From Deltaproteobacteria bacterium (GTDB lineage: Bacteria > Desulfobacterota_C > Deferrisomatia > Deferrisomatales > JACRMM01): a DNA stretch of 13,195 nt. The translations under genes and the position numbers were made by a program. Positions 954-12,363 of this stretch are shown here, in pieces (position 1 is the first letter of the stretch; every line of letters begins with the position of its first letter). The DNA lies in NCBI GenBank assembly GCA_016218905.1, contig JACRCS010000117.1, positions 1 through 13,195 of the forward strand. The letters run 5' to 3'. The notes beneath the pieces are model-generated. The model worked only from the letters and a program-made list of their open reading frames with translations. It had not been told where the DNA came from and searched no databases.

Positions 954-3900
954 CTAGGGCAGACTCGAGTCGTACCGCTGCCCGTCGTCCGCGCAGTCGT
1001 CCTTCCGGTCATGGGGCACGCAGACCGTTACCGCGCCCGTGCAGCCCTCGCCGAAGCTGTCGACGGCCGTGAAGCTCACCCGGTAGACCCGGCCGTTGCC
1101 CAGGCCGGCGCGCTCGGCCCTTAGGAGGGTCTGCGCACCTTGGAGGACCGCGTCGGGGCTCGTGTCCCCGTCTCCGAGGCCGTCGGTCGGCTCATCCTGA
1201 GTCACGGCCGTGACTTCGACGGTGACCTGGCCGTTCTCCGGATCCGCGATCTCGGCGATGCTCATCGGCAGCAGTTTGTGATTGGGCGGCCAGAGCGAAG
1301 CCACGCTCGACTGGGCGAGATCACAGCGGGGCGGATCGTTGACGTTGAGCACGGTTACCGCCACCTCGTCGGAGTCGGAGGCGCCCAGTGTGTCCGTGAC
1401 CGTAAGCTCGAACACCAGCACGGCCCCGCCGGCACCGACCAGCGGCGCGGAGAAGGTCGGAGTCTGTGCCGACTCGTCGGAGAGCGGCACCGCCGGTCCG
1501 GAGACTTGTCTCCACGAGAAGGCGAGCGCGTCGCCGTCCGGATCCGAGCTCCTCGACCCGTTCAGGGTGACGAGGCTCCCTTCGTTCTTCGTCTGATCGC
1601 GGCCCGCCTTCGCCACCGGAGGATGATTGACGTTCTCGACGAAGATGCTCACCTCGTCCGGGCGGACCGAGTTCTCGATCCCGTCGCTGACGGTCAGGGC
1701 GAACACGAGGGTCTCGCCCGCCGGCCCCTCCGCGGGAGCGCTAAAGGAAGGGCTCGCTGAGGTGGGATCCGAGAGCGTCACGGGGGTGCCCGAGAGCTGG
1801 AGCCAGGAGTAGTAGGCGATCGGCTCGTCGTCGAGGTCATAGCTGTGTGTTCCGTCCAGAGTGACGAGCGTCCCTTCCTGGACCCTCTCGGGCCCATCGG
1901 CATCCGCGACGGGAGCGTGGTTCACGTTCTTCACCGTCACGTCGACGGTATCGGTCGCCGTGGCCGAACCGTCGCTCACCGTGAGCTGGAACGTCAGCGT
2001 CTCACCGCCGGCCGGAACGGCAGGGGCGGTGAAGGACGGCCGGGCGGTATCACTGGCCTGCAGAGTGACCGAAGTTCCCGCGAGTTGGATCCAGGAGTAC
2101 GTCAGCGTGTCGCCGTCCGGGTCCACGGAAGCCGAGCCGTTCAGGGGGACCCAGGTTCCCTCGTCGACGCTCTGGTCGGCGCCTGCAACGGCGACGGGCG
2201 GCTCGTTGACGTTGAGGTGCAGGACCTGCAGGCCCATCATGCCCGTACCGGCAAAGATCGTCTTGCCGGATACCCCAACTCCCCAACCGAACTGTCCGTT
2301 CATCCTCGCCGGGTACGCCGGCGCGACCTGGATCGGAGCGGACGGGTCGGAGACGTCGAGCACGAGCAGGCTCGAGTTGTCCGCCACGTAGGCGTACGTC
2401 CCCGAAATCGTCACCCCTTGGGCGTCTCCCGGAGTATCGAAGGACCCAGCCGAGGAGGGCGCCGCCGGGTCGGTGACGTCGATGATCCGGAGCCCGGCGC
2501 TCCCGTCCGCCACGTAGGCGTAATGCCCGGACAGTTTCACGGCCTTCGCGATGCCCGGGGTGTCGAGCGAGCCGACGATCCTCAAGTTCGCGGCGTCCGT
2601 GAGGTCGATCACCTGCAGCCCGCTCGCCCCGTCGGCTACGTAGGCGTACGGCCACAGGACCTCGACGGCGTAGGCGGAAGCGGGGGTGTCGAGCGAGCTC
2701 ACGTAGACCGGGCTCGCCGGAGCGGTTACGTCGAGGACCACGAGGCCGTTGTCTCCGTCCGCGACGTAGGCGTAGTTGCCGGCGAACGCGATCCCCCGCG
2801 CCGCTCCCGAAGGAGAAGAGCGCGGCCAGCTGTAGGCCGCTACCCGCACGAGGCTGGCGGGATCGGAGAGGTCGAAGACCTCCAGGCCCCGATAGTCGTG
2901 CGGCGCATAGAGGAGCGTGCCCCTGACGGCGAGGTTGTAGTAGTTGGCGACTTCCCCACCCCAGACGATCTCGTACGTGCTGGTCCAGCGGGGTGCCGCG
3001 GGGTCGCTGACGTCGATGGCCCGCAGGCCCCCGTTCCCCTCCGCCCCGTAGACGTAACCGCCCGAGAGGACGAGGGTCTCCAGAACGCCGACGGGCGGAG
3101 CGTAGACCGCGACGCCGGGCGACCCGGGCTCGCCCAGCAGGATGTGCCCGTACCACTGGCCGGGCTCCTTAGGCTGGGCGACGAGGTTCGGGATGTTCAT
3201 GACCTGGAGGGAGTGTCCGCCCATCGCGACGAAGGCGTAGTCCCCGACGAGCCGCACGTCGCTGCCGGAGCCCAGCGGGTGAAAGGCACCGAGGACGACG
3301 GGCTGGGCCGGCGTCTTGACGTCTATGATCCACAAACCCTGCGTGTCCGGCCACCGCGGGTCCCAGACGCCCTCGGTGCCGCCTCCCACCGCGACGTAGG
3401 CCCATCCGTCCCGGACGACGACGTTTCTGGCCCAGGCGATATTGGTCGGGAGAGGGACGGGCGCCCCGAACACCATGGACTGGAAGGCGACGTAAGAAGG
3501 ATGGGTCGGGTCGGAGACGTCGAGGATCAGGAGGCCCGAATTCGCTGCGACGTAGGCGTAACCGCCCGCGACGGCGACACCTCGAAACAACCGCCCCGAC
3601 GACGGCAGCACGCTGTACGCCCCCTTCTGAACCGGGTGGGTCGGATCGGTCACGTCGACGATGACGAGGTTGAACCGCGCGGCCAGGTAGGCGTAGTCCC
3701 CTTCCACGACGACGTTGTAGACCGAGTAGCGGTTGCCCGAAGAGTTCCGAAACTCCATGGAGCTCAAGAGCTCGGGGGCGCTCGGGTTGGAGACGTCCAG
3801 GATGTGGAGGCTCCCGTTGCCGGTGAGATACACGCGCGAGCCCACGACCGCGACTCCATACGAGTCTATGTCGGGCGGGCAGAAGGAGCCCACTTCGTGC

Positions 3901-4289
3901 GGATTGCCGGGGTCCAAAACGTCGAGGATCCGCAAGCCCCCCGTCGCGGCCGCGGCGTACGCGTAGTTGCCGGAGACGACGACGTCCCGGACGAAGTCCG
4001 GCAGGAGCCCGCTCCTCGCGACCGTCTGGATGTTCAAGGGATCGGCGATATCGATCACCGCCAGCCGCGGCCCTTCGCCGGCATAGGCGTACCGGCCCTG
4101 AATGTCCACTCCCATGGTGGCCCCGCCCAACTGGCCGACCGGATCGATCCCGGTCTCCGTCGCGGACACCGGGAAGACGACGACGCCGGAGGAGAAGAGT
4201 AAGACCAGGGCACAGAGCAGGACGGGGGCCCATCCGCTCCTCGGCCGGGACGGCCCATCCGATACGGGCTTGTGCGGGGACGTTTCCAT
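954..4289 (-). CDS. Secreted LVIVD-repeat beta-propeller protein with three PKD-type domains and a WPPNHK C-terminal domain
   Basis: A 1111-residue exported protein. An ATG at 4289 is preceded by GGGAGGAG at good spacing. The next 43 residues look like a signal peptide (Arg at 15 and 17, hydrophobic core about 21-42, cleavage after VSA). Residues about 55-692 hold 14 repeats of roughly 40-50 residues of the LVIVD type, with the pattern YAYVADG..GL.VIDVTDP; the strand motif recurs near 76, 119, 161, 208, 253, 319, 361, 422, 469, 516, 558, 600, 641 and 687. Fourteen blades would fit two seven-bladed propellers (inference). Three PKD/cadherin-like domains follow (about 695-789, 790-888, 889-984), each with an NxPPVA-type start and a (D/N)GSxSxDPDGD-type acidic loop that could bind calcium. 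The C-terminus has the LWPPNHK motif (999-1005) common in extracellular multidomain proteins, and four cysteines (989, 1083, 1090, 1099). No membrane anchor or sorting signal is visible, so it is probably secreted or surface-associated. The ligand is unknown. The frame stays open upstream to an ATG at 4457, but that would bury the signal peptide. Confidence 0.85.
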   Translation of the reverse strand: METSPHKPVSDGPSRPRSGWAPVLLCALVLLFSSGVVVFPVSATETGIDPVGQLGGATMGVDIQGRYAYAGEGPRLAVIDIADPLNIQTVARSGLLPDFVRDVVVSGNYAYAAAATGGLRILDVLDPGNPHEVGSFCPPDIDSYGVAVVGSRVYLTGNGSLHILDVSNPSAPELLSSMEFRNSSGNRYSVYNVVVEGDYAYLAARFNLVIVDVTDPTHPVQKGAYSVLPSSGRLFRGVAVAGGYAYVAANSGLLILDVSDPTHPSYVAFQSMVFGAPVPLPTNIAWARNVVVRDGWAYVAVGGGTEGVWDPRWPDTQGLWIIDVKTPAQPVVLGAFHPLGSGSDVRLVGDYAFVAMGGHSLQVMNIPNLVAQPKEPGQWYGHILLGEPGSPGVAVYAPPVGVLETLVLSGGYVYGAEGNGGLRAIDVSDPAAPRWTSTYEIVWGGEVANYYNLAVRGTLLYAPHDYRGLEVFDLSDPASLVRVAAYSWPRSSPSGAARGIAFAGNYAYVADGDNGLVVLDVTAPASPVYVSSLDTPASAYAVEVLWPYAYVADGASGLQVIDLTDAANLRIVGSLDTPGIAKAVKLSGHYAYVADGSAGLRIIDVTDPAAPSSAGSFDTPGDAQGVTISGTYAYVADNSSLLVLDVSDPSAPIQVAPAYPARMNGQFGWGVGVSGKTIFAGTGMMGLQVLHLNVNEPPVAVAGADQSVDEGTWVPLNGSASVDPDGDTLTYSWIQLAGTSVTLQASDTARPSFTAPAVPAGGETLTFQLTVSDGSATATDTVDVTVKNVNHAPVADADGPERVQEGTLVTLDGTHSYDLDDEPIAYYSWLQLSGTPVTLSDPTSASPSFSAPAEGPAGETLVFALTVSDGIENSVRPDEVSIFVENVNHPPVAKAGRDQTKNEGSLVTLNGSRSSDPDGDALAFSWRQVSGPAVPLSDESAQTPTFSAPLVGAGGAVLVFELTVTDTLGASDSDEVAVTVLNVNDPPRCDLAQSSVASLWPPNHKLLPMSIAEIADPENGQVTVEVTAVTQDEPTDGLGDGDTSPDAVLQGAQTLLRAERAGLGNGRVYRVSFTAVDSFGEGCTGAVTVCVPHDRKDDCADDGQRYDSSLP

Positions 4290-4477
4290 CGTTCTCCTCC
4301 CGTTCTTGCCATCCGTGGCGTTTGCGGCGAAAAAAGCGGGAAAGAGCCCGGACGGCGGTCCAGGCTCCCGATTCGGAAGCTCACGCGGGCAGAGAGGATT
4401 GGTTCGAAGAGTTCCGGAGAGACCTGAGGGATCGAGGCGCGCGCGTCCCGCTTGCATGGGGCCCCTCTCCTACGAAC

Positions 4478-4778: not shown

Positions 4779-6056
4779 ATGGCTTTTCCCGCCGCGGCCC
4801 TCGCGGGCTACACCCTGTGGCTCCTCTCTCTTCCGATGGAGGGGTTTCTGCTGGGCTGCGCCGGCGGCGCAACTTCCCTTCTCTTCTTCCTTTTCCCGCA
4901 CGTCGCCTCGCTCTTCCTCTCGTCGCGGCTGCCGCGGCAAGCCTTTGCGGGCATCTCGCGCCTCGCCGGTCTGACGGCCGTGGCGGGGACGCTCCTCTTC
5001 CCCCTCTGGCCCGAGTGCTCGAAGGCTCTCCTCGTGGCCCTAGGGGTCCTCTCCGGCCCCGTCGCCCTTCGCGCCGGAGCCATCGTCAAGGCGGACCGGG
5101 ATCCCCAGTACTGTGCGGCCTCGTCCCTGATCGCCGCGAACCTGCTCCTGGCCGCGCTCGTCCCGGCCCCCGTTCCGTTCTGGCACAAGCTGGTTCTGGT
5201 GGGTCTCGCCCTCTCCGTCCCGGTCCTGACGGAGCTTCCGGGGCAGCCGATCGCCGCGCTTCCGGGCGCCTCGCCACCTCCTCGCCGGGAACCCCTCAGC
5301 AGCTATCTTCCGCTGATCTTCGTCTTTCACCTCGTCAGCGGAATCTTCTACGGGAGCCTCATGCCGGCCTACGAGCGCGTCCGCCTGCTTCCGGCCGTCG
5401 AGCTCGTCTTCTACGTGGCCGCGGTCCTGCTCGCGCTGAAACCGTTCGCCCGCGAAATGGAAAGGGCACTCACGGGCGCCGTCCTCCTCAGTATGAGCTC
5501 GCTCGGCCTGTTTCTCGCGCAGACGGTCGAGTCGATCCACCTGAGCATGTTCGCCATGCAGGCCGCCGCCGGTTTCATGGACGTGTTCGTGCTCTTCCTG
5601 CTGCTGGGCCAGGACGACCCGATCGACGCCTTCGGCGTCGGCCTGGGCACGCTCTGCTCCGGGATCCTCGCCGGGAACCTGGTGTCCCTCTTCCTGGGCA
5701 ATCTGCCGGGGGCGATCCCCCTAATCGGCAACATGGCCCTGAACCTCGCGCTGCTGGCCCTCTACTGGCTGGGCAGGAGGACCCCGGCCCAAGCGCCGGT
5801 GCCGCTCCCGGTCGAGCCGGAGGAGCGCCCCGCCGCGGCCCATCGGCTGCCGCCGGGCCTGCACGCCCGCCTATCCGCCATGGAGCGGTCCGTGCTGAGC
5901 GCGATCCTGAACGGGTCGACCTTCAGGGAAGCGGCGGCGGAGTTGGCGGTCTCGGAGTCGTCGATCAAGACCTACATGAGAAGGATCTACGAGAAGGCGG
6001 GGGTTCGAGGGAAAGACGCGCTCCTCGCCCTGCTCTCACCCGAGGGCGAGGCCTGA
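4779..6056 (+). CDS. Polytopic membrane protein with a C-terminal LuxR-type helix-turn-helix
   Basis: A 425-residue protein. Residues about 8-335 are a run of hydrophobic segments (roughly ten to twelve, resembling an MFS-like sensor module), with a proline-rich loop near 160-172 between the two halves. After a Pro/Glu linker (335-360), residues 363-420 form a LuxR/GerE HTH: LSAMERSVLSAILNGSTFREAAAELAVS leads into the recognition helix SESSIKTYMRRIYEKAGV and then the usual DALL end. This architecture is a membrane-anchored one-component regulator that would bind DNA from the membrane; no receiver domain or autoinducer domain is present. The start chosen is the ATG at 4779 with GAAGG about seven bases ahead. 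The DUF1786 gene starts 50 bases after the stop, so the two are probably co-transcribed. The ligand and target genes are unknown; the dyads upstream are the natural first candidates. The HTH assignment is firm; calling the membrane part MFS-like is less so. Confidence 0.85.
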   Translation: MAFPAAALAGYTLWLLSLPMEGFLLGCAGGATSLLFFLFPHVASLFLSSRLPRQAFAGISRLAGLTAVAGTLLFPLWPECSKALLVALGVLSGPVALRAGAIVKADRDPQYCAASSLIAANLLLAALVPAPVPFWHKLVLVGLALSVPVLTELPGQPIAALPGASPPPRREPLSSYLPLIFVFHLVSGIFYGSLMPAYERVRLLPAVELVFYVAAVLLALKPFAREMERALTGAVLLSMSSLGLFLAQTVESIHLSMFAMQAAAGFMDVFVLFLLLGQDDPIDAFGVGLGTLCSGILAGNLVSLFLGNLPGAIPLIGNMALNLALLALYWLGRRTPAQAPVPLPVEPEERPAAAHRLPPGLHARLSAMERSVLSAILNGSTFREAAAELAVSESSIKTYMRRIYEKAGVRGKDALLALLSPEGEA

Positions 6057-6106: not shown

Positions 6107-7180
6107 ATGACCTTTCTGATGATCGACATCGGCGCCGGGACCATGGATCTGCTCTGGTACGAGAGCGCCACGGGGGAGCACTACAAGGCGGTGGCTCCTT
6201 CGCCGGTGCGGGACGTCGCCCGCCGGCTCGCCGAGACCACCGGCTCCCTCGTCGTGACCGGAGTGGAGATGGGCGGCGGCCCGGTCAGCGAACTCCTGCG
6301 GGCGCGCGCGCGCTCGGCCGACGTGGTCATGTCGGCCGCAGCCGCGGCCACGCTCCACCACGATCCGGAGCGCGTTCGCGGCTGGGGAATCCGCGTCGAG
6401 GACCCGCCGGCCCTAGGGCGCTGCCTGGCCGATCCGACCTACACTCCGGTAACCCTCGGGGACGTCCAGTCTCGGCGGATCACCGAGCTCCTCGCCGGGC
6501 TCGGTCTACCTCCCGAGGTCGACGTCGTTGCCCTCTGCGCGCAGGACCACGGCGTGGCGCCGGAGGGGACGTCGCACCTCGACTTCCGCCAGAGCCAGTT
6601 CCGGTCGCGGCTCGACGAGAACCCCTCGCCGCGCGCGCTCCTCTTCCGCGGGGACGAAGTGCCCGCGAGCTTCAACCGGCTGCGAAGCATCGCCCAGACC
6701 GCGGCCGAGCTGAGACCGGCGGAGGTCTACGTACTGGACAGCGGCATGGCCGCAATCCTCGGCGCGACCCAGGACGTGCAACTCGCGGGAAAGCGCGCCG
6801 CGATCGTGCTCGACATCGCGACCTCCCACACGGTGGCCGCCGTGGTCGCCGAGGGCGACCTTGCCGGCTACTTCGAGTACCACACGCGAGACGTCACGCT
6901 CGAACGGCTGGAGACCCTGCTGCCCGCGCTCGCCGACGGTCGGATCGACCACGCCACCCTCCTCGCCGAAGGCGGCCACGGCGCCTACCTGCGCCGGGCC
7001 GTAGGCTTCGACCGGATCGAGACGATCCTCGCCACGGGCCCCAAGCGCCGCCTGGTGGCCGGGTCGAGCTTTCCGATCACCTGGGGCGCTCCGTGGGGAG
7101 ACAACATGATGACCGGGACCGTCGGGCTGCTGGAGGCCGTCCGCCGCCGGAAGGGGTTGGCGCCGATTCAATACCTCTAA
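6107..7180 (+). CDS. DUF1786 family protein, ASKHA (actin/Hsp70/hexokinase-like) fold
   Basis: A 357-residue soluble protein of unknown function, recognised as DUF1786. It opens with a phosphate-1-like loop, MIDIGAGTMDLL (5-16), and has a second one, VLDIATSHTVAAV (234-246), as in the ASKHA ATPase superfamily. Other family-like landmarks are MGGGPV (55-60), CAQDHG (144-149), EGGHGAY (288-294) and the C-terminal WGAPWGDNMMTGTVGLL (326-342). Some database entries for this family carry a pyruvate formate-lyase activating label; nothing here supports that, since there is no radical-SAM CxxxCxxC motif. The ATG at 6107 has AGGTGA seven bases or so upstream. The same frame stays open far upstream through the regulator gene, but that part is an out-of-frame shadow. 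Its place directly after the membrane LuxR gene suggests that they work together or answer the same signal. Confidence 0.8.
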   Translation: MTFLMIDIGAGTMDLLWYESATGEHYKAVAPSPVRDVARRLAETTGSLVVTGVEMGGGPVSELLRARARSADVVMSAAAAATLHHDPERVRGWGIRVEDPPALGRCLADPTYTPVTLGDVQSRRITELLAGLGLPPEVDVVALCAQDHGVAPEGTSHLDFRQSQFRSRLDENPSPRALLFRGDEVPASFNRLRSIAQTAAELRPAEVYVLDSGMAAILGATQDVQLAGKRAAIVLDIATSHTVAAVVAEGDLAGYFEYHTRDVTLERLETLLPALADGRIDHATLLAEGGHGAYLRRAVGFDRIETILATGPKRRLVAGSSFPITWGAPWGDNMMTGTVGLLEAVRRRKGLAPIQYL

Positions 7181-7374: not shown

Positions 7375-8289
7375 ATGTCATCCGAGAACGCGCTCGCCTC
7401 CAGCTCGAGACTTCACCTCGCCGCCGCAACGCTCTGCGTCTTGTTCTGGGGCGGTTCGTTTGCCGTCACCCGTTCGGCGGTGACGGAAGTACCGCCCATG
7501 ACCCTCGCGCTCCTCCGGTTCGCGCTCGCTTCTCTCATCCTCTGGCCCGTCTCCCGTCGCCTGCACGGCAGGATTCGACTCGCGCGTCGAGATCGATGGG
7601 ACGTGCTGGGCCTCGCGCTGTGCGGAGTCACGCTCTACCACGCCTTCGAGAACCTCGCATTGAGGCACACCTCTGCTTCCGTAGGCTCCCTCATCATCTC
7701 CACCGTCCCCCTCGCGACGGCCGTCGCCGAGTCCATCACGGCGCGCTCGTTTCCGAGTCGTCCCGCGATGGTCGGGCTCTGCGCCGGCTTCGCGGGAGTC
7801 CTGTTCCTGATGGACGGCGCGGAATCGGGGCACGCGAGCTTTCTCGGGAACGTCCTCATGGGGGCGGCGGTCATCTGCTGGGTCGGCTATACCGGGTTGG
7901 TGCGGCGCCTCGGCGGACGCTACCCGGACCTGTGGCTGGCCGCCATGATCACAGGAGTGGGGGCGGCTGGGCTGGTCCCGTTTGCCGCGGCAGAGTGGCT
8001 GAGAGGGACGGTCCGACTGCCCAGCGCGGCCGGTTGGGCATCTCTCCTCTACCTCGGTGCCCTCTGTTCCGCGCTGGCGTACGTGCTCTGGAGCGCGGCC
8101 GTGCGGGTGCTGGGTACGGTCCCGACCAATAGTCTCATCTATGGAATGCCTCTAGTGGGGGTTCTCTCCGGCGCGCTCTTCCTCGGAGAGCCGCTGTCGG
8201 TGCGACTGCTGTGCGGCGGAGTGCTCATCGTGGCGGGGGTCGCGGTCGCCTCATGGTCAACCCTGGGGGCCGGGCAAGATCCAGCGTAA
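7375..8289 (+). CDS. EamA/DMT-superfamily membrane transporter
   Basis: A 304-residue inner-membrane protein of the drug/metabolite transporter superfamily with two EamA repeats of five helices each (about 14-147 and 156-294). Family landmarks are LFWGGSFAVTRSAV (23-36), RFALASLIL (48-56), the NLALRHTSASVGSLI stretch (93-107), and in the second repeat SALAYVLWSAAVRVLG (232-247) followed by LFLGEPLSVRLLCGGVLIVAGV (268-289). Family members mostly export amino acids or other small metabolites; the substrate cannot be read from sequence. The ATG at 7375 has AGGT about nine bases upstream, a somewhat long spacing. It has its own candidate promoter and converges on the Mut7-C gene with 63 bases between the stop codons. 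Confidence 0.88.
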   Translation: MSSENALASSSRLHLAAATLCVLFWGGSFAVTRSAVTEVPPMTLALLRFALASLILWPVSRRLHGRIRLARRDRWDVLGLALCGVTLYHAFENLALRHTSASVGSLIISTVPLATAVAESITARSFPSRPAMVGLCAGFAGVLFLMDGAESGHASFLGNVLMGAAVICWVGYTGLVRRLGGRYPDLWLAAMITGVGAAGLVPFAAAEWLRGTVRLPSAAGWASLLYLGALCSALAYVLWSAAVRVLGTVPTNSLIYGMPLVGVLSGALFLGEPLSVRLLCGGVLIVAGVAVASWSTLGAGQDPA

Positions 8290-8352: not shown

Positions 8353-8859
8353 TCACGAACGAGGCAAAGCTTCGAGCAGGCGGCGCAGCCGGCGCTGGAG
8401 GCTCTCGCCGTGACTTCCGTGCCAGTAGACGCGGCCGCAGCCGGGGCAGTGGAGGTAGGAGCGGATCGTGTTCGCCACGTGGTCGGGCACCCGGTCCCGC
8501 GCCTCCTCGGGGGTGAGCGCCTTGAGCCGGGTGTTGCACTGCGTGCAGCGCGAGAGGACGCCGGGCGGTCTCCAGGCGCCGAGCGCGGCGAGGACCTCGA
8601 CCGTCTGCTCGGCCGGCTCGCCCGACCGGACGAGGCTGCAGAGAACACCCCGGGCGCGGAGCGCGAGGGCACGGTCGCGCGTGACCAGGACCCGGCCTTC
8701 CGCCTGGGCGCGGCGCAGCAGGACCGCGTCGTCCACCTCCGGGGCGAACTCGGCGTCATAGCCCAGAAGCCTCAGGTCTCTGGCGACGTTGCCCAGCATG
8801 GCATCCACGAGGAAACGGGGAGCCTTCGAGCTCTCCTCTTCTGAGACGCCGTTCCCCAA
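8353..8859 (-). CDS. Mut7-C PIN-like RNase domain protein with C-terminal zinc ribbon
   Basis: About 168 residues if it starts at the TTG at 8859 (GGAG nine bases ahead). Residues 13-75 match the Mut7-C domain, a PIN-like nuclease fold: RFLVDAMLGNVARDLRLLGYD gives the first acidic residue (Asp19), VDDAVLL the middle acids (43-44), and VLVTRDRALALRARG the third (Asp62). Residues 105-141 hold two CxxC pairs, CTQC (105-108) and CPGC (138-141), spaced like a zinc ribbon, followed by VYWHGSHG typical of the family. It is presumed to be an RNase; its biological role is unsettled. No ATG start fits: the in-frame ATG at 9099 would add 80 residues of non-family sequence and run antisense through the panC leader. 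The start is therefore the weak point; the domain call is firm. Confidence 0.8.
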   Translation of the reverse strand: MGNGVSEEESSKAPRFLVDAMLGNVARDLRLLGYDAEFAPEVDDAVLLRRAQAEGRVLVTRDRALALRARGVLCSLVRSGEPAEQTVEVLAALGAWRPPGVLSRCTQCNTRLKALTPEEARDRVPDHVANTIRSYLHCPGCGRVYWHGSHGESLQRRLRRLLEALPRS

Positions 8860-8958
8860 GTTTCCGGCTCCCGGCAGGTCGAGGACCAGATCTCCCTCAA
8901 CCCGCCATTCACTCTTCCGCCCGCCGTTCGTAAGCAGTGAACCGACCGCGCTGACGGC

Positions 8959-8988
8959 TTGACAGCGGTCGCCGTCGGATGGTAGAAA
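8959..8988 (+). promoter_or_regulatory. Strong candidate promoter for the panC leader RNA
   Basis: A consensus -35 TTGACA (8959-8964), an 18-base spacer, and TAGAAA (8983-8988), which would start RNA near 8995. It points at panC, whose start codon is about 185 bases further on, and it lies in the divergent gap between the Mut7-C gene and panC. Confidence 0.6.
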
Positions 8989-8995
8989 TCCGCTC

Positions 8996-9142
8996 ACCGC
9001 TTGGATCCAGTTTTGGACCGGGACGGGGACGAAACAGCTTCTCGCGGCACTCGGTTGCCGCCCTGTTGCGAACGTGCCACGCAATCGGCGTCGGCACAAG
9101 ATTTCGTCTTCGAACGCCCCCGGTCAGCCGGCGGGCGTTTTT
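8996..9142 (+). ncRNA. Structured leader RNA upstream of panC: candidate attenuator, riboswitch or small RNA
   Basis: Folded by eye from the predicted start site. (1) Hairpin 9003-9019 with one bulged A at 9005 and loop GTTT. (2) A long closing helix pairing 9024-9034 with 9102-9112, 11 bp including two G-U pairs. (3) Inside it, hairpin GCGGCA (9044-9049) with TGCCGC (9056-9061), with CAG/CTG pairing below. (4) Also inside, hairpin GTGCCACGC (9074-9082) with GCGT-C-GGCAC (9088-9097), loop AATCG. (5) Immediately after the closing helix, an intrinsic terminator (9113-9142). This layout of aptamer-like multi-helix body plus terminator before a biosynthesis gene resembles a riboswitch or attenuator, but I do not recognise a known class. 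A motif called pan is described upstream of pantothenate genes in other bacteria; similarity to it is unproven here. An independent small RNA is the alternative. Confidence 0.5.
9113..9142 (+). terminator. Intrinsic terminator 39 nt before panC
   Basis: AACGCCCCCGG (9113-9123), loop TCAG, then CCGG-C-GGGCGTT (9128-9139) with one bulged C, running into TTTTT (9138-9142) and a second TTTT at 9147-9150. No protein gene on the plus strand ends just before it, and the 39 bases to panC hold no promoter. A transcript from the 8959-8988 promoter must therefore read through it to express panC. Confidence 0.65.
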
Positions 9143-9181
9143 CGCGTTTTGGAGCCGAAATTCCGGCCTCGGGACAGAGCG

Positions 9182-10030
9182 ATGGACGTATTCCAGACGA
9201 TCGCGGAGATGAAGTCCGCCTCCCGAGGGGCCCGGCGAAAGGGGCTGCGGGTCGGCTTAGTCCCGACCATGGGCTACCTCCACGAGGGCCACCTCGCCCT
9301 GGTGCGCAAGGCGCGAGAGCTCTCGGATTGGGTAGCGGTCTCGATCTTCGTCAACCCCACCCAATTCGGACCGTCGGAGGACCTCGCCTCCTACCCGCGA
9401 GACCTCGCCCGGGACACCGAGCTCTGCCGGGGGGCCGGCGCCGACGCCCTCTTCGTGCCGGCGGTCGAGGAGATCTATCCCGCCGGCTTCCAGACCTACG
9501 TGACCGTGGAGAGGCTCTCGGAGCCGCTCTGCGGCGCCGCCCGTCCGGGCCACTTCCGGGGCGTCGCGACCGTCGTGGCGAAGCTCTTCAACATCGTCGC
9601 GCCCGACGTCGCCGTCTTCGGAGAAAAGGACTACCAGCAGCTCCAGGTCATCCGCCGGATGGCACGAGACCTCGCCATGGACGTGGAGGTGGTCGGACTC
9701 CCCACGGTCCGCGAGGCGGACGGCCTCGCCATGTCGAGCCGGAACACGTACCTCTCCGCCGAGGAGCGGGAGAGAGCGGCGAGTCTCTCCCAGTCGCTCG
9801 CCCTCGCCCAGGAACTCGTCACGTCCGGAACTCGCGGCACTCCGGAGATCCTCGAGAGGGTCGGCGCTCTCCTCGAGAGGGCCGGGGGCCGCGTGGAGTA
9901 TGCCGAACTCCGCGACGCCGAGACCCTCGAAACGCTGGAGGAGGTCCGTTCCAGCGCCGTCCTGGCGCTCGCCGTCCGGATCGGGCGGACGCGCCTCATC
10001 GACAACCGAGTCCTTTCCGTTCCCGTTTGA
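9182..10030 (+). CDS. panC: Pantothenate synthetase (pantoate--beta-alanine ligase)
   Basis: A 282-residue cytoplasmic enzyme that joins pantoate and beta-alanine using ATP (via pantoyl-adenylate) to form pantothenate, the CoA precursor. All family motifs are present in order: VPTMGYLHEGHLAL with the HIGH-like HEGH (34-37), IFVNPTQFGPSEDL (55-68), RPGHFRGVATVVAKLFNIV (121-139), FGEKDYQQLQVIRRM (146-160) and the KMSKS-like READGLAMSSRNTYLS (177-192). The length is normal. The ATG at 9182 is chosen because the family begins at MDVFQTIAEM; a longer frame from 9074 would add 36 residues that overlap the leader terminator. The SD is weak (GGGACAGAG). panD follows after 30 bases, and its substrate link (PanD makes the beta-alanine) supports an operon. 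panB is not in this window. Confidence 0.97.
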   Translation: MDVFQTIAEMKSASRGARRKGLRVGLVPTMGYLHEGHLALVRKARELSDWVAVSIFVNPTQFGPSEDLASYPRDLARDTELCRGAGADALFVPAVEEIYPAGFQTYVTVERLSEPLCGAARPGHFRGVATVVAKLFNIVAPDVAVFGEKDYQQLQVIRRMARDLAMDVEVVGLPTVREADGLAMSSRNTYLSAEERERAASLSQSLALAQELVTSGTRGTPEILERVGALLERAGGRVEYAELRDAETLETLEEVRSSAVLALAVRIGRTRLIDNRVLSVPV

Positions 10031-10060: not shown

Positions 10061-10423
10061 ATGACGCGCAGCATGTTGAAGGGGAAGATCCATCGAGCCA
10101 CGGTCACGGGGGCCGACCTGCACTACGAGGGAAGCATCACCATCGACCAGGACCTCATGGACGCGGCGGACATCCTGCCGTACGAGGAGGTGCGGATCTA
10201 CAACGTCAACAACGGCGAACGCTTCGAGACGTACGCGATCCCCGGCCCCTCGGGCTCCGGCGTCATCTGCATCAACGGAGCGGCCGCGCACAAGGCGAGC
10301 CCGGGCGACGTGGTGATCATCGCGTGCTTCGGCCTGGCGGAAGCCCACGAGCTCGAGAAGTGGCAGCCGAGCCTCGTCTACGTCGACGGCGCCAACCGGA
10401 TCGCCTACCGGAAGGCGGCCTGA
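10061..10423 (+). CDS. panD: Aspartate 1-decarboxylase proenzyme
   Basis: A 120-residue proenzyme that cleaves itself to create a pyruvoyl cofactor and then decarboxylates L-aspartate to beta-alanine, the substrate PanC needs. The self-cleavage site is Gly24-Ser25 in HYEGSITID. Lys8 in [12 protein letters not shown], Arg54, Thr57 and Tyr58 (ERFETYAI) and [12 protein letters not shown] (72-83) match the pyruvoyl family, with the cleavage site and 54-58 landmarks at the positions known from E. coli. The length is close to the usual 120-130 residues. GGAGGAG lies seven bases ahead of the ATG, a strong ribosome site and much better than that of panC. Thirty bases separate it from panC. Confidence 0.97.
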
Positions 10424-12287: not shown

Positions 12288-12309
12288 GTGGACCCGGTGG
12301 AGCGCCCGC

Positions 12310-12363
12310 GTCGTCCACGTCGTCCACATCGTCCACGTCGTCCACATCGTCCACTTCGTCGAT
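12310..12363. repeat. 9-bp tandem repeat array between tilS and ftsH
   Basis: Five copies of (G/A)TCGTCCAC in a row (12310-12354), with the first base alternating between G and A in the last four copies, plus a degenerate sixth (TTCGTCGAT). GTGGAC, the reverse complement of the unit core, also occurs at 12279-12284 (the end of tilS) and 12288-12293, so the RNA could fold GTGGAC against any of several GTCCAC copies. A polymorphic minisatellite is likely; a structural role is possible. Confidence 0.8.

What the first reader, a model, noticed from the sequence alone, without database searches (positions are those of the whole stretch)
8959..9181. Structured, terminator-ended leader RNA upstream of panC
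A consensus TTGACA promoter (8959-8988) is followed by a 145-nt stretch that folds by eye into an 11-bp closing helix (9024-9034/9102-9112) around two perfect or near-perfect hairpins. A small bulged-A hairpin stands in front and an intrinsic terminator (9113-9142) directly behind. panC begins only 39 nt later with no promoter in between, so the terminator must be leaky or regulated. This is the layout of a riboswitch or attenuator for pantothenate/CoA metabolism. A free-standing small RNA is the alternative. I do not recognise the class. A possible competing pairing is CCGGG (9018-9022) with CCCGG (9119-9123), which would break the terminator.
Basis: partly seen in the sequence, partly recalled or inferred. 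Interest (0 to 1): 0.72.

Follow-up and report, generated by a model that had tools for sequence, protein, structure and literature searches.

The report
Single-hairpin pan-motif attenuator before panC
The leader of this vitamin B5 operon starts with a single copy of the poorly understood "pan motif" RNA hairpin, and comparison with related leaders suggests that one strand of this hairpin can instead pair with the terminator behind it, so that the hairpin would decide whether transcription stops or runs on into the genes.

Summary
The structure is real. Rfam scores it below cut-off (20.6 vs 36.2 bits; its model spans two hairpins), but near-identical units precede panC or panB in relatives; a one-unit model matches 181 of 395 genomes of the nearest phylum sample at E <= 0.1.

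New here: the hairpin's 3' strand is complementary to the terminator (GACCGGG 9016-9022 / CCCGGUC 9119-9125). Over 118 leaders such complementarity exceeds swapped terminators (z -7.3) and stem-preserving shuffles (z -13); the 5' strand shows none. A pan C/U change tracks a terminator G/A change. The signal recurs, weaker, in 27 leaders of a second phylum. In the nascent window RNA both states are nearly equal in energy until the terminator completes; the nearest relative, L089, lacks this balance.

Best reading: a co-transcriptional strand-exchange attenuator; whatever stabilises the pan hairpin stops transcription. Effector and direction are inferred. The two-hairpin middle domain is not conserved.

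The parts
8959..8989 (+). promoter: TTGACA (8959-8964), 18-nt spacer, TAGAAA (8983-8988) preceded by TG; predicted start about 8995
   Evidence: sequence; exact TTGACA 34-40 nt before the pan unit in 30 of 118 leaders; not listed by the consensus scan or the pattern
8997..9026 (+). single pan-motif unit: 11-bp hairpin with bulged A9005 and A9023 (proposed sensor)
   Evidence: Rfam RF01749 sub-threshold match; structural scan; alignment A1 with relatives; model R1, of which the window is itself a training row, 39.6 bits
9016..9022 (+). switching strand GACCGGG (3' strand of the pan unit), predicted to pair with 9119-9125
   Evidence: complementarity statistics
9024..9112 (+). middle domain: closing helix 9024-9034/9102-9112 around hairpins 9044-9061 and 9074-9097; lineage-specific spacer
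   Evidence: z -2.7 against 300 shuffles; not conserved as a structure in relatives
9112..9142 (+). intrinsic terminator: stem 9112-9140, bulged C9132, U run
   Evidence: z -3.6 for 9113-9140
9119..9125 (+). CCCGGUC, terminator 5' arm and loop, partner of 9016-9022 in the antiterminator
   Evidence: the same CCCGGUC stands in the terminators of L089, L094 and L095
9182..10030 (+). panC, pantoate-beta-alanine ligase
   Evidence: Pfam PF02569, E 4.6e-108
10061..10423 (+). panD, aspartate decarboxylase
   Evidence: Pfam PF02261, E 2.1e-51

Best explanation
The leader is a transcription attenuator whose sensor is one pan-motif hairpin at the 5' end of the RNA. If the hairpin is held closed by its effector, its 3' strand is hidden, the terminator at 9112-9140 forms and transcription stops before panC-panD. 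If it is not held, then while polymerase is inside the terminator the 3' strand GACCGGG (9016-9022) swaps partners to CCCGGUC (9119-9125); the CGG base of the pan hairpin joins the closing helix of the middle domain (8 to 11 bp), and this antiterminator blocks the terminator. Shown by computation: pan-unit homology, terminator, complementarity beyond controls, near-equal energies in the window. Inferred: the promoter's activity, the effector (a protein, or a product of the pathway), the direction (bound = OFF, end-product feedback) and any effect in the cell.
For: Pan unit: Rfam sub-threshold match and near-identical units before panC or panB in relatives. Complementarity of the pan 3' strand to the own terminator, 118 leaders: -13.41 kcal/mol against -12.01 swapped (z -7.3, 0 of 5000) and -10.28 stem-preserving shuffles (z -13); 5' strand no signal. 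Thinned to 100, 75 and 45 terminators: z -6.4, -5.8, -3.7. Covariation: pan GACCG has CGGTC in 17 of 71 terminators and CAGTC in 0; pan GACTG has CAGTC in 7 of 42 and CGGTC in 2; 8 and 4 matched, 0 crossed among 75 thinned leaders, Fisher p 0.002. Second phylum, 27 leaders: swap p 0.017, shuffle z -3.4, 5' strand none. Smallest nascent energy gap between states: mean 2.2 kcal/mol against 6.5 shuffled and 4.7 swapped. Window: antiterminator -52.0 against pan state -50.1 at 9128, and -60.1 against -70.5 at 9142.
Against: No experiment. The exact 5-nt complement (CGGTC or CAGTC matched to the pan core) is in only 24 of 113 leaders, and 32 of 118 leaders are individually in the top 5% of their shuffles. 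The overall signal lies mainly in the 3' half of the terminators (z -6.2; 5' half z -2.1), whereas the window's partner is the 5' arm and loop. L089, nearest by panC, has the same CCCGGUC but a gap of 5.9 kcal/mol; L090 (3.2) and L100 (7.2) also fail. Permutations ignore the phylogeny apart from the thinning. The closed pan hairpin forms first (-14.2 kcal/mol alone), so exchange needs strand displacement or a pause. Weak signal also appears after the terminator tail (z -2.1).
Confidence: 0.68

Rival explanations
1. The pan hairpin binds a protein (a pathway enzyme or a dedicated regulator) that acts on polymerase or the terminator directly; the 3'-strand/terminator complementarity is a by-product and no strand exchange occurs.
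For: [quoted passage not shown] In L089, L090 and L100 of the window's nearest order the alternative state is not close in energy.
Against: Complementarity and covariation specific to the 3' strand and to the terminator.
Confidence: 0.17
2. The terminator is constitutive and leaky, and the pan unit acts on RNA stability or translation of panC.
For: A terminator lies between promoter and panC, so some read-through is needed in any case; in 15 of 138 leaders my finder saw no terminator.
Against: 118 of 138 leaders have a terminator of -9 kcal/mol or better within 190 nt of the pan unit, with complementarity to it.
Confidence: 0.08
3. The two-hairpin middle domain (9024-9112) is the sensor, a separate riboswitch aptamer.
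For: In the window it folds better than shuffles (9024-9112, z -2.7, 2 of 300).
Against: Over 51 leaders with long middles mean z is -0.63, 8 below -2, and end-to-end pairing equals shuffles; 37 of 118 leaders have 25 nt or less there. In that script the window itself scored -0.7, because its terminator call cut off the last 8 nt of the domain.
Confidence: 0.04
4. A free-standing small RNA that ends at the terminator.
For: Own promoter-like site and terminator give an RNA of about 150 nt.
Against: The unit precedes a panC or panB motif in 110 of 138 leaders; no Rfam sRNA match at gathering score.
Confidence: 0.03

Closest known systems
pan motif (Rfam RF01749; Weinberg et al. 2010, PMC2864571)
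   Same: Stem interrupted by two bulged A's, same core sequence, 5' of panC-panD
   Different: One unit, not two; scores below Rfam's cut-off; here joined to a terminator by a predicted strand exchange that the passage read does not describe
Transcription-attenuating leaders with mutually exclusive antiterminator and terminator (for example trp/TRAP of B. subtilis; recalled, and abstract seen)
   Same: Sensor ahead of competing antiterminator and terminator, on a biosynthetic operon
   Different: The sensor hairpin's own 3' strand is the antiterminator strand; effector unknown; no transcription data
Metabolite riboswitches acting by termination (recalled as a class)
   Same: 5' leader, near-balanced alternative folds, end-product logic
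   Different: No ligand known; a hairpin of 30 nt is small for an aptamer (recalled); a review says a CoA class is absent (PMC9971707, passage read)

Membership tests
[quoted passage not shown]
   A9005 and A9023 in an 11-bp stem; published definition from the passage
[quoted passage not shown]
   panC and panD follow
pan motif RF01749 | Rfam gathering score (36.2 bits) | tested here: not met
   20.6 bits, second hairpin only (model 60-88 of 92); of 20 fetched relatives 7 reach the cut-off. Filed here as a single-unit variant, not as a full RF01749 match
pan motif RF01749 | tandem arrangement (most members, not all) | tested here: not met
   one unit found in the window; the stretch upstream is promoter sequence
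pan motif RF01749 | core sequence shared with relatives | tested here: met
   CCGCTTGGATCC...GGACCGGGACGG in alignment A1; rows were chosen with a scanner that requires pairing and bulged A's
transcription attenuator | mutually exclusive terminator and antiterminator | tested here: met
   by energy computation and complementarity only
transcription attenuator | premature termination that responds to a signal | not testable with these tools
   needs transcription assays or RNA-seq
riboswitch | direct binding of a metabolite without protein | not testable with these tools
   needs in-line probing or a binding assay
6S RNA or another known small RNA | match to an Rfam model at gathering score | tested here: not met
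   no match in the whole window

The most novel reading that the evidence does not exclude
The pan motif is a direct metabolite riboswitch for the pantothenate/CoA pathway in which one 30-nt hairpin is both aptamer and antiterminator strand: a minimal strand-exchange riboswitch that would fill the gap reviews describe for CoA-related ligands.
Probability: 0.27. Interest if true: 0.82.

Novelty: new variant of a known kind. Interest (0 to 1): 0.55.

Why it matters
The pan motif was described in 2010 without a known effector and is widespread: the one-unit model matches 181 of 395 genomes in one phylum sample (E <= 0.1), and the Rfam model 116 of 299 in another (E <= 0.001). A review states that a riboswitch class for CoA is notably absent (PMC9971707, passage read). 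A recurring antiterminator complementarity gives a base-by-base testable model of how the pan hairpin could control its genes, and a read-through assay with which to look for the effector. A one-unit model also finds units that Rfam's two-unit model scores below cut-off (13 of 20).

Tried and rejected
6S or another known RNA: no Rfam match at gathering score in the whole window. At E up to 10 four families are listed for 8900-9200; besides pan these are a Neisseria frameshift element (16.4 bits, cut-off 50) and two sRNAs near 11.7 bits, taken as chance.

Middle domain as conserved aptamer: not supported. Pan 5' strand as terminator partner: no signal. Pan 3' strand against the last 30 nt of the middle (n 57, z -1.1) and 30 nt upstream of pan (z 0.4): no signal; against 30 nt after the tail a weak one (z -2.1); pan 5' strand against 30 nt upstream also weak (z -2.1).

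Other copies in the window's own genome could not be sought; no whole genome is held. Effector or mechanism in print: ten paper searches, open-access papers only. From the listings, Weinberg 2010 was the only paper that treats the pan motif as its subject; three RNA-seq papers mention it (passages). The attenuation survey PMC2965389 has no occurrence of panB, panC, pantothenate or pan in its main text. PMC13236596 (attenuation in Mycobacterium, listed) was not read.

Rows dropped and choices. Of 73 rows, 60 were used; 13 were second fetches of the same genomic place. With 18 rows and 60 this made 138 leaders; some genomes give two, and L091/L120 are near-identical. 20 were dropped before the tests: 15 without a terminator call, 5 with one weaker than -9 kcal/mol; 118 remained, window included. 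The finder had no shuffle control and some calls may be wrong (L137, 154 nt away). L090 was among the dropped, yet is shown with a hand-picked terminator. For L131 and L137 I widened the model's coordinates by two bases on each side. Of the places listed, 30 came as loci and 60 more were fetched; weaker or already held ones were not. In one search, 27 of 30 loci had a usable terminator; the 30 were the best-scoring places. A1 was chosen with a scanner that requires pairing and bulged A's, so its pair counts are partly by construction, and the window is one of its 27 rows.

Full report
What is there. The stretch 8995-9142 folds far better than shuffles (z -3.71, 0 of 200). In order it holds a TTGACA promoter-like site, a small hairpin with two bulged A's (8997-9026), a closing helix around two hairpins (9024-9112) and an intrinsic terminator (stem 9112-9140 plus U run). 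panC (9182) and panD (10061) follow.

What the front hairpin is. Rfam at permissive settings aligns 8997-9026 with the second hairpin of the pan motif RF01749 (20.6 bits, cut-off 36.2, E 0.24 for 301 bases and 4227 families). Relatives support it: near-identical CCGCTTGGATCC...GGACCGGGACGG units stand before panC or panB in many genomes. A one-unit covariance model built from 27 units, the window among them (R1), matches 181 of 395 genomes at E <= 0.1 in a sample of the phylum of the closest named panC relative. That relative is a MAG titled Deltaproteobacteria (L001), and the sample includes the genome of a MAG titled Desulfobacterales (G004), so the window most likely comes from the Desulfobacterota (inference; best panC identity 66%). 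In the 27 units 97.3% of cells pair and 5 of 11 pairs change on both sides; the rows were picked with a scanner that requires pairing, so this only supports.

Why Rfam misses it. The Rfam model spans two hairpins; the window has one unit and promoter sequence upstream. Of 20 fetched relatives, 7 reach Rfam's cut-off.

How it is wired to the terminator. Of 138 collected leaders, 118 have a terminator of -9 kcal/mol or better behind the pan unit. The last 15 nt of the unit (its 3' strand with three loop bases) are complementary to the leader's own terminator: mean duplex energy -13.41 kcal/mol against -12.01 for terminators swapped among leaders (z -7.3, 0 of 5000 permutations) and -10.28 for terminators shuffled with their stems kept (z -13). 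The 5' strand gives -8.48 against -8.49 swapped. With terminators thinned to under 90, 80 and 70% identity (n 100, 75, 45) the 3'-strand signal stays at z -6.4, -5.8 and -3.7. It is specific: the last 30 nt of the middle z -1.1, 30 nt after the tail z -2.1, 30 nt upstream z 0.4. Within the terminator it is mainly in the 3' half (z -6.2) and less in the 5' half (z -2.1); the window, L089, L094 and L095 use the 5' arm and loop (CCCGGUC). The variable pan base covaries with the terminator: pan GACCG has CGGTC in 17 of 71 terminators and CAGTC in 0; pan GACTG has CAGTC in 7 of 42 and CGGTC, a wobble partner, in 2. Among 75 thinned leaders there are 8 and 4 matched cases and no crossed ones (Fisher p 0.002). 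So an exact 5-nt match is present in a minority (24 of 113), and 32 of 118 leaders are individually in the top 5% of their shuffles. L109 carries a further change on both sides (GGACCAA with UUGGUCC). The same test on 27 of 30 leaders with full Rfam pan matches from a second phylum sample (that of Sporosalibacterium, Bacillota by inference) gives swap z -2.2, p 0.017, and shuffle z -3.4 for the 3' strand, and nothing for the 5' strand.

Energy balance. For each leader I compared, along the growing terminator, the pan state with the best state in which the pan 5' strand is unpaired. The smallest gap has median 1.6 and mean 2.2 kcal/mol, against a mean of 6.5 for stem-preserving shuffles and 4.7 for swapped terminators; 61 of 118 lie at 2 or less, against 14.8% of shuffled and 24.4% of swapped cases. 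Over the whole terminator the pan state wins in 117 of 118 (mean 8.7). In the window the antiterminator (GACCGGG 9016-9022 with CCCGGUC 9119-9125, next to the now 11-bp closing helix) stands at -52.0 against -50.1 kcal/mol when the RNA ends at 9128, at -53.3 against -54.8 at 9132, and loses by 10.4 at 9142. Among 11 leaders (the window and the ten panC-bearing genomes of its nearest order) 8 come within 0.5 kcal/mol or below; L089 (5.9), L090 (3.2) and L100 (7.2) do not. L089 is the nearest by panC and carries the same CCCGGUC, so this counts against a simple energy argument.

The middle domain. In the window 9024-9112 folds better than shuffles (z -2.7, 2 of 300). Over 51 leaders with long middles mean z is -0.63, 8 are below -2, and end-to-end pairing equals shuffles (2.31 against 2.34 pairs); middle lengths run from 12 to 154 nt. 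The window's own value in that script is -0.7, because its terminator call swallowed the last 8 nt of the domain. I read the domain as a spacer that in the window has become a stalk for the antiterminator.

Mechanism. Most likely pan closed = terminator = OFF and pan open = antiterminator = ON, giving end-product feedback. [quoted passage not shown] a metabolite is possible. Reviews note the absence of a CoA riboswitch class (PMC9971707 and PMC10043782, passages read). RNA-seq papers of Paenibacillus and two Bacillus species list the pan element (PMC5670726, PMC4342826, PMC4634765; passages read) and give no mechanism in those passages.

Novelty. The element is a single-unit variant of a known RNA without a known effector. 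The exchange between 3' strand and terminator was not found in what my ten searches reached, all open access; Weinberg's additional files and subscription papers were not read.

Noticed in passing
L091 and L092, just upstream of the pan unit: CCAAGC stands shortly before the unit and could pair with GCUUGG of the pan 5' strand, a possible anti-pan hairpin that would free the 3' strand. Over 118 leaders the 5' strand has a weak complementarity to the 30 nt upstream (z -2.1, p 0.018).
   Followed up: partly
window 6200-7180 (+), P0001: DUF1786 protein (PF08735, E 9.3e-61), of unclear function, between a LuxR-type regulator gene (4779-6056) and an EamA transporter gene (7375-8289).
   Followed up: no
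window 954-4457 (-): Protein of 1167 aa with nine LVIVD repeat stretches and PKD/cadherin-like domains; looks like a surface protein (inference).
   Followed up: no
window 8353-8841 (-): Mut7-C RNase-domain protein (PF01927), transcribed away from the pan leader.
   Followed up: no
window about 12300-12345: Run of short repeats coding Ser-Thr-Ser in one frame, between tilS and a gene that by its sequence looks like the start of ftsH (ftsH is recalled, not tested).
   Followed up: no
L243-L272, for example L248, L249, L257: In the second phylum sample many second pan units read GGAGCC where the Desulfobacterota units read GGATCC, opposite GGACC; not explained.
   Followed up: no
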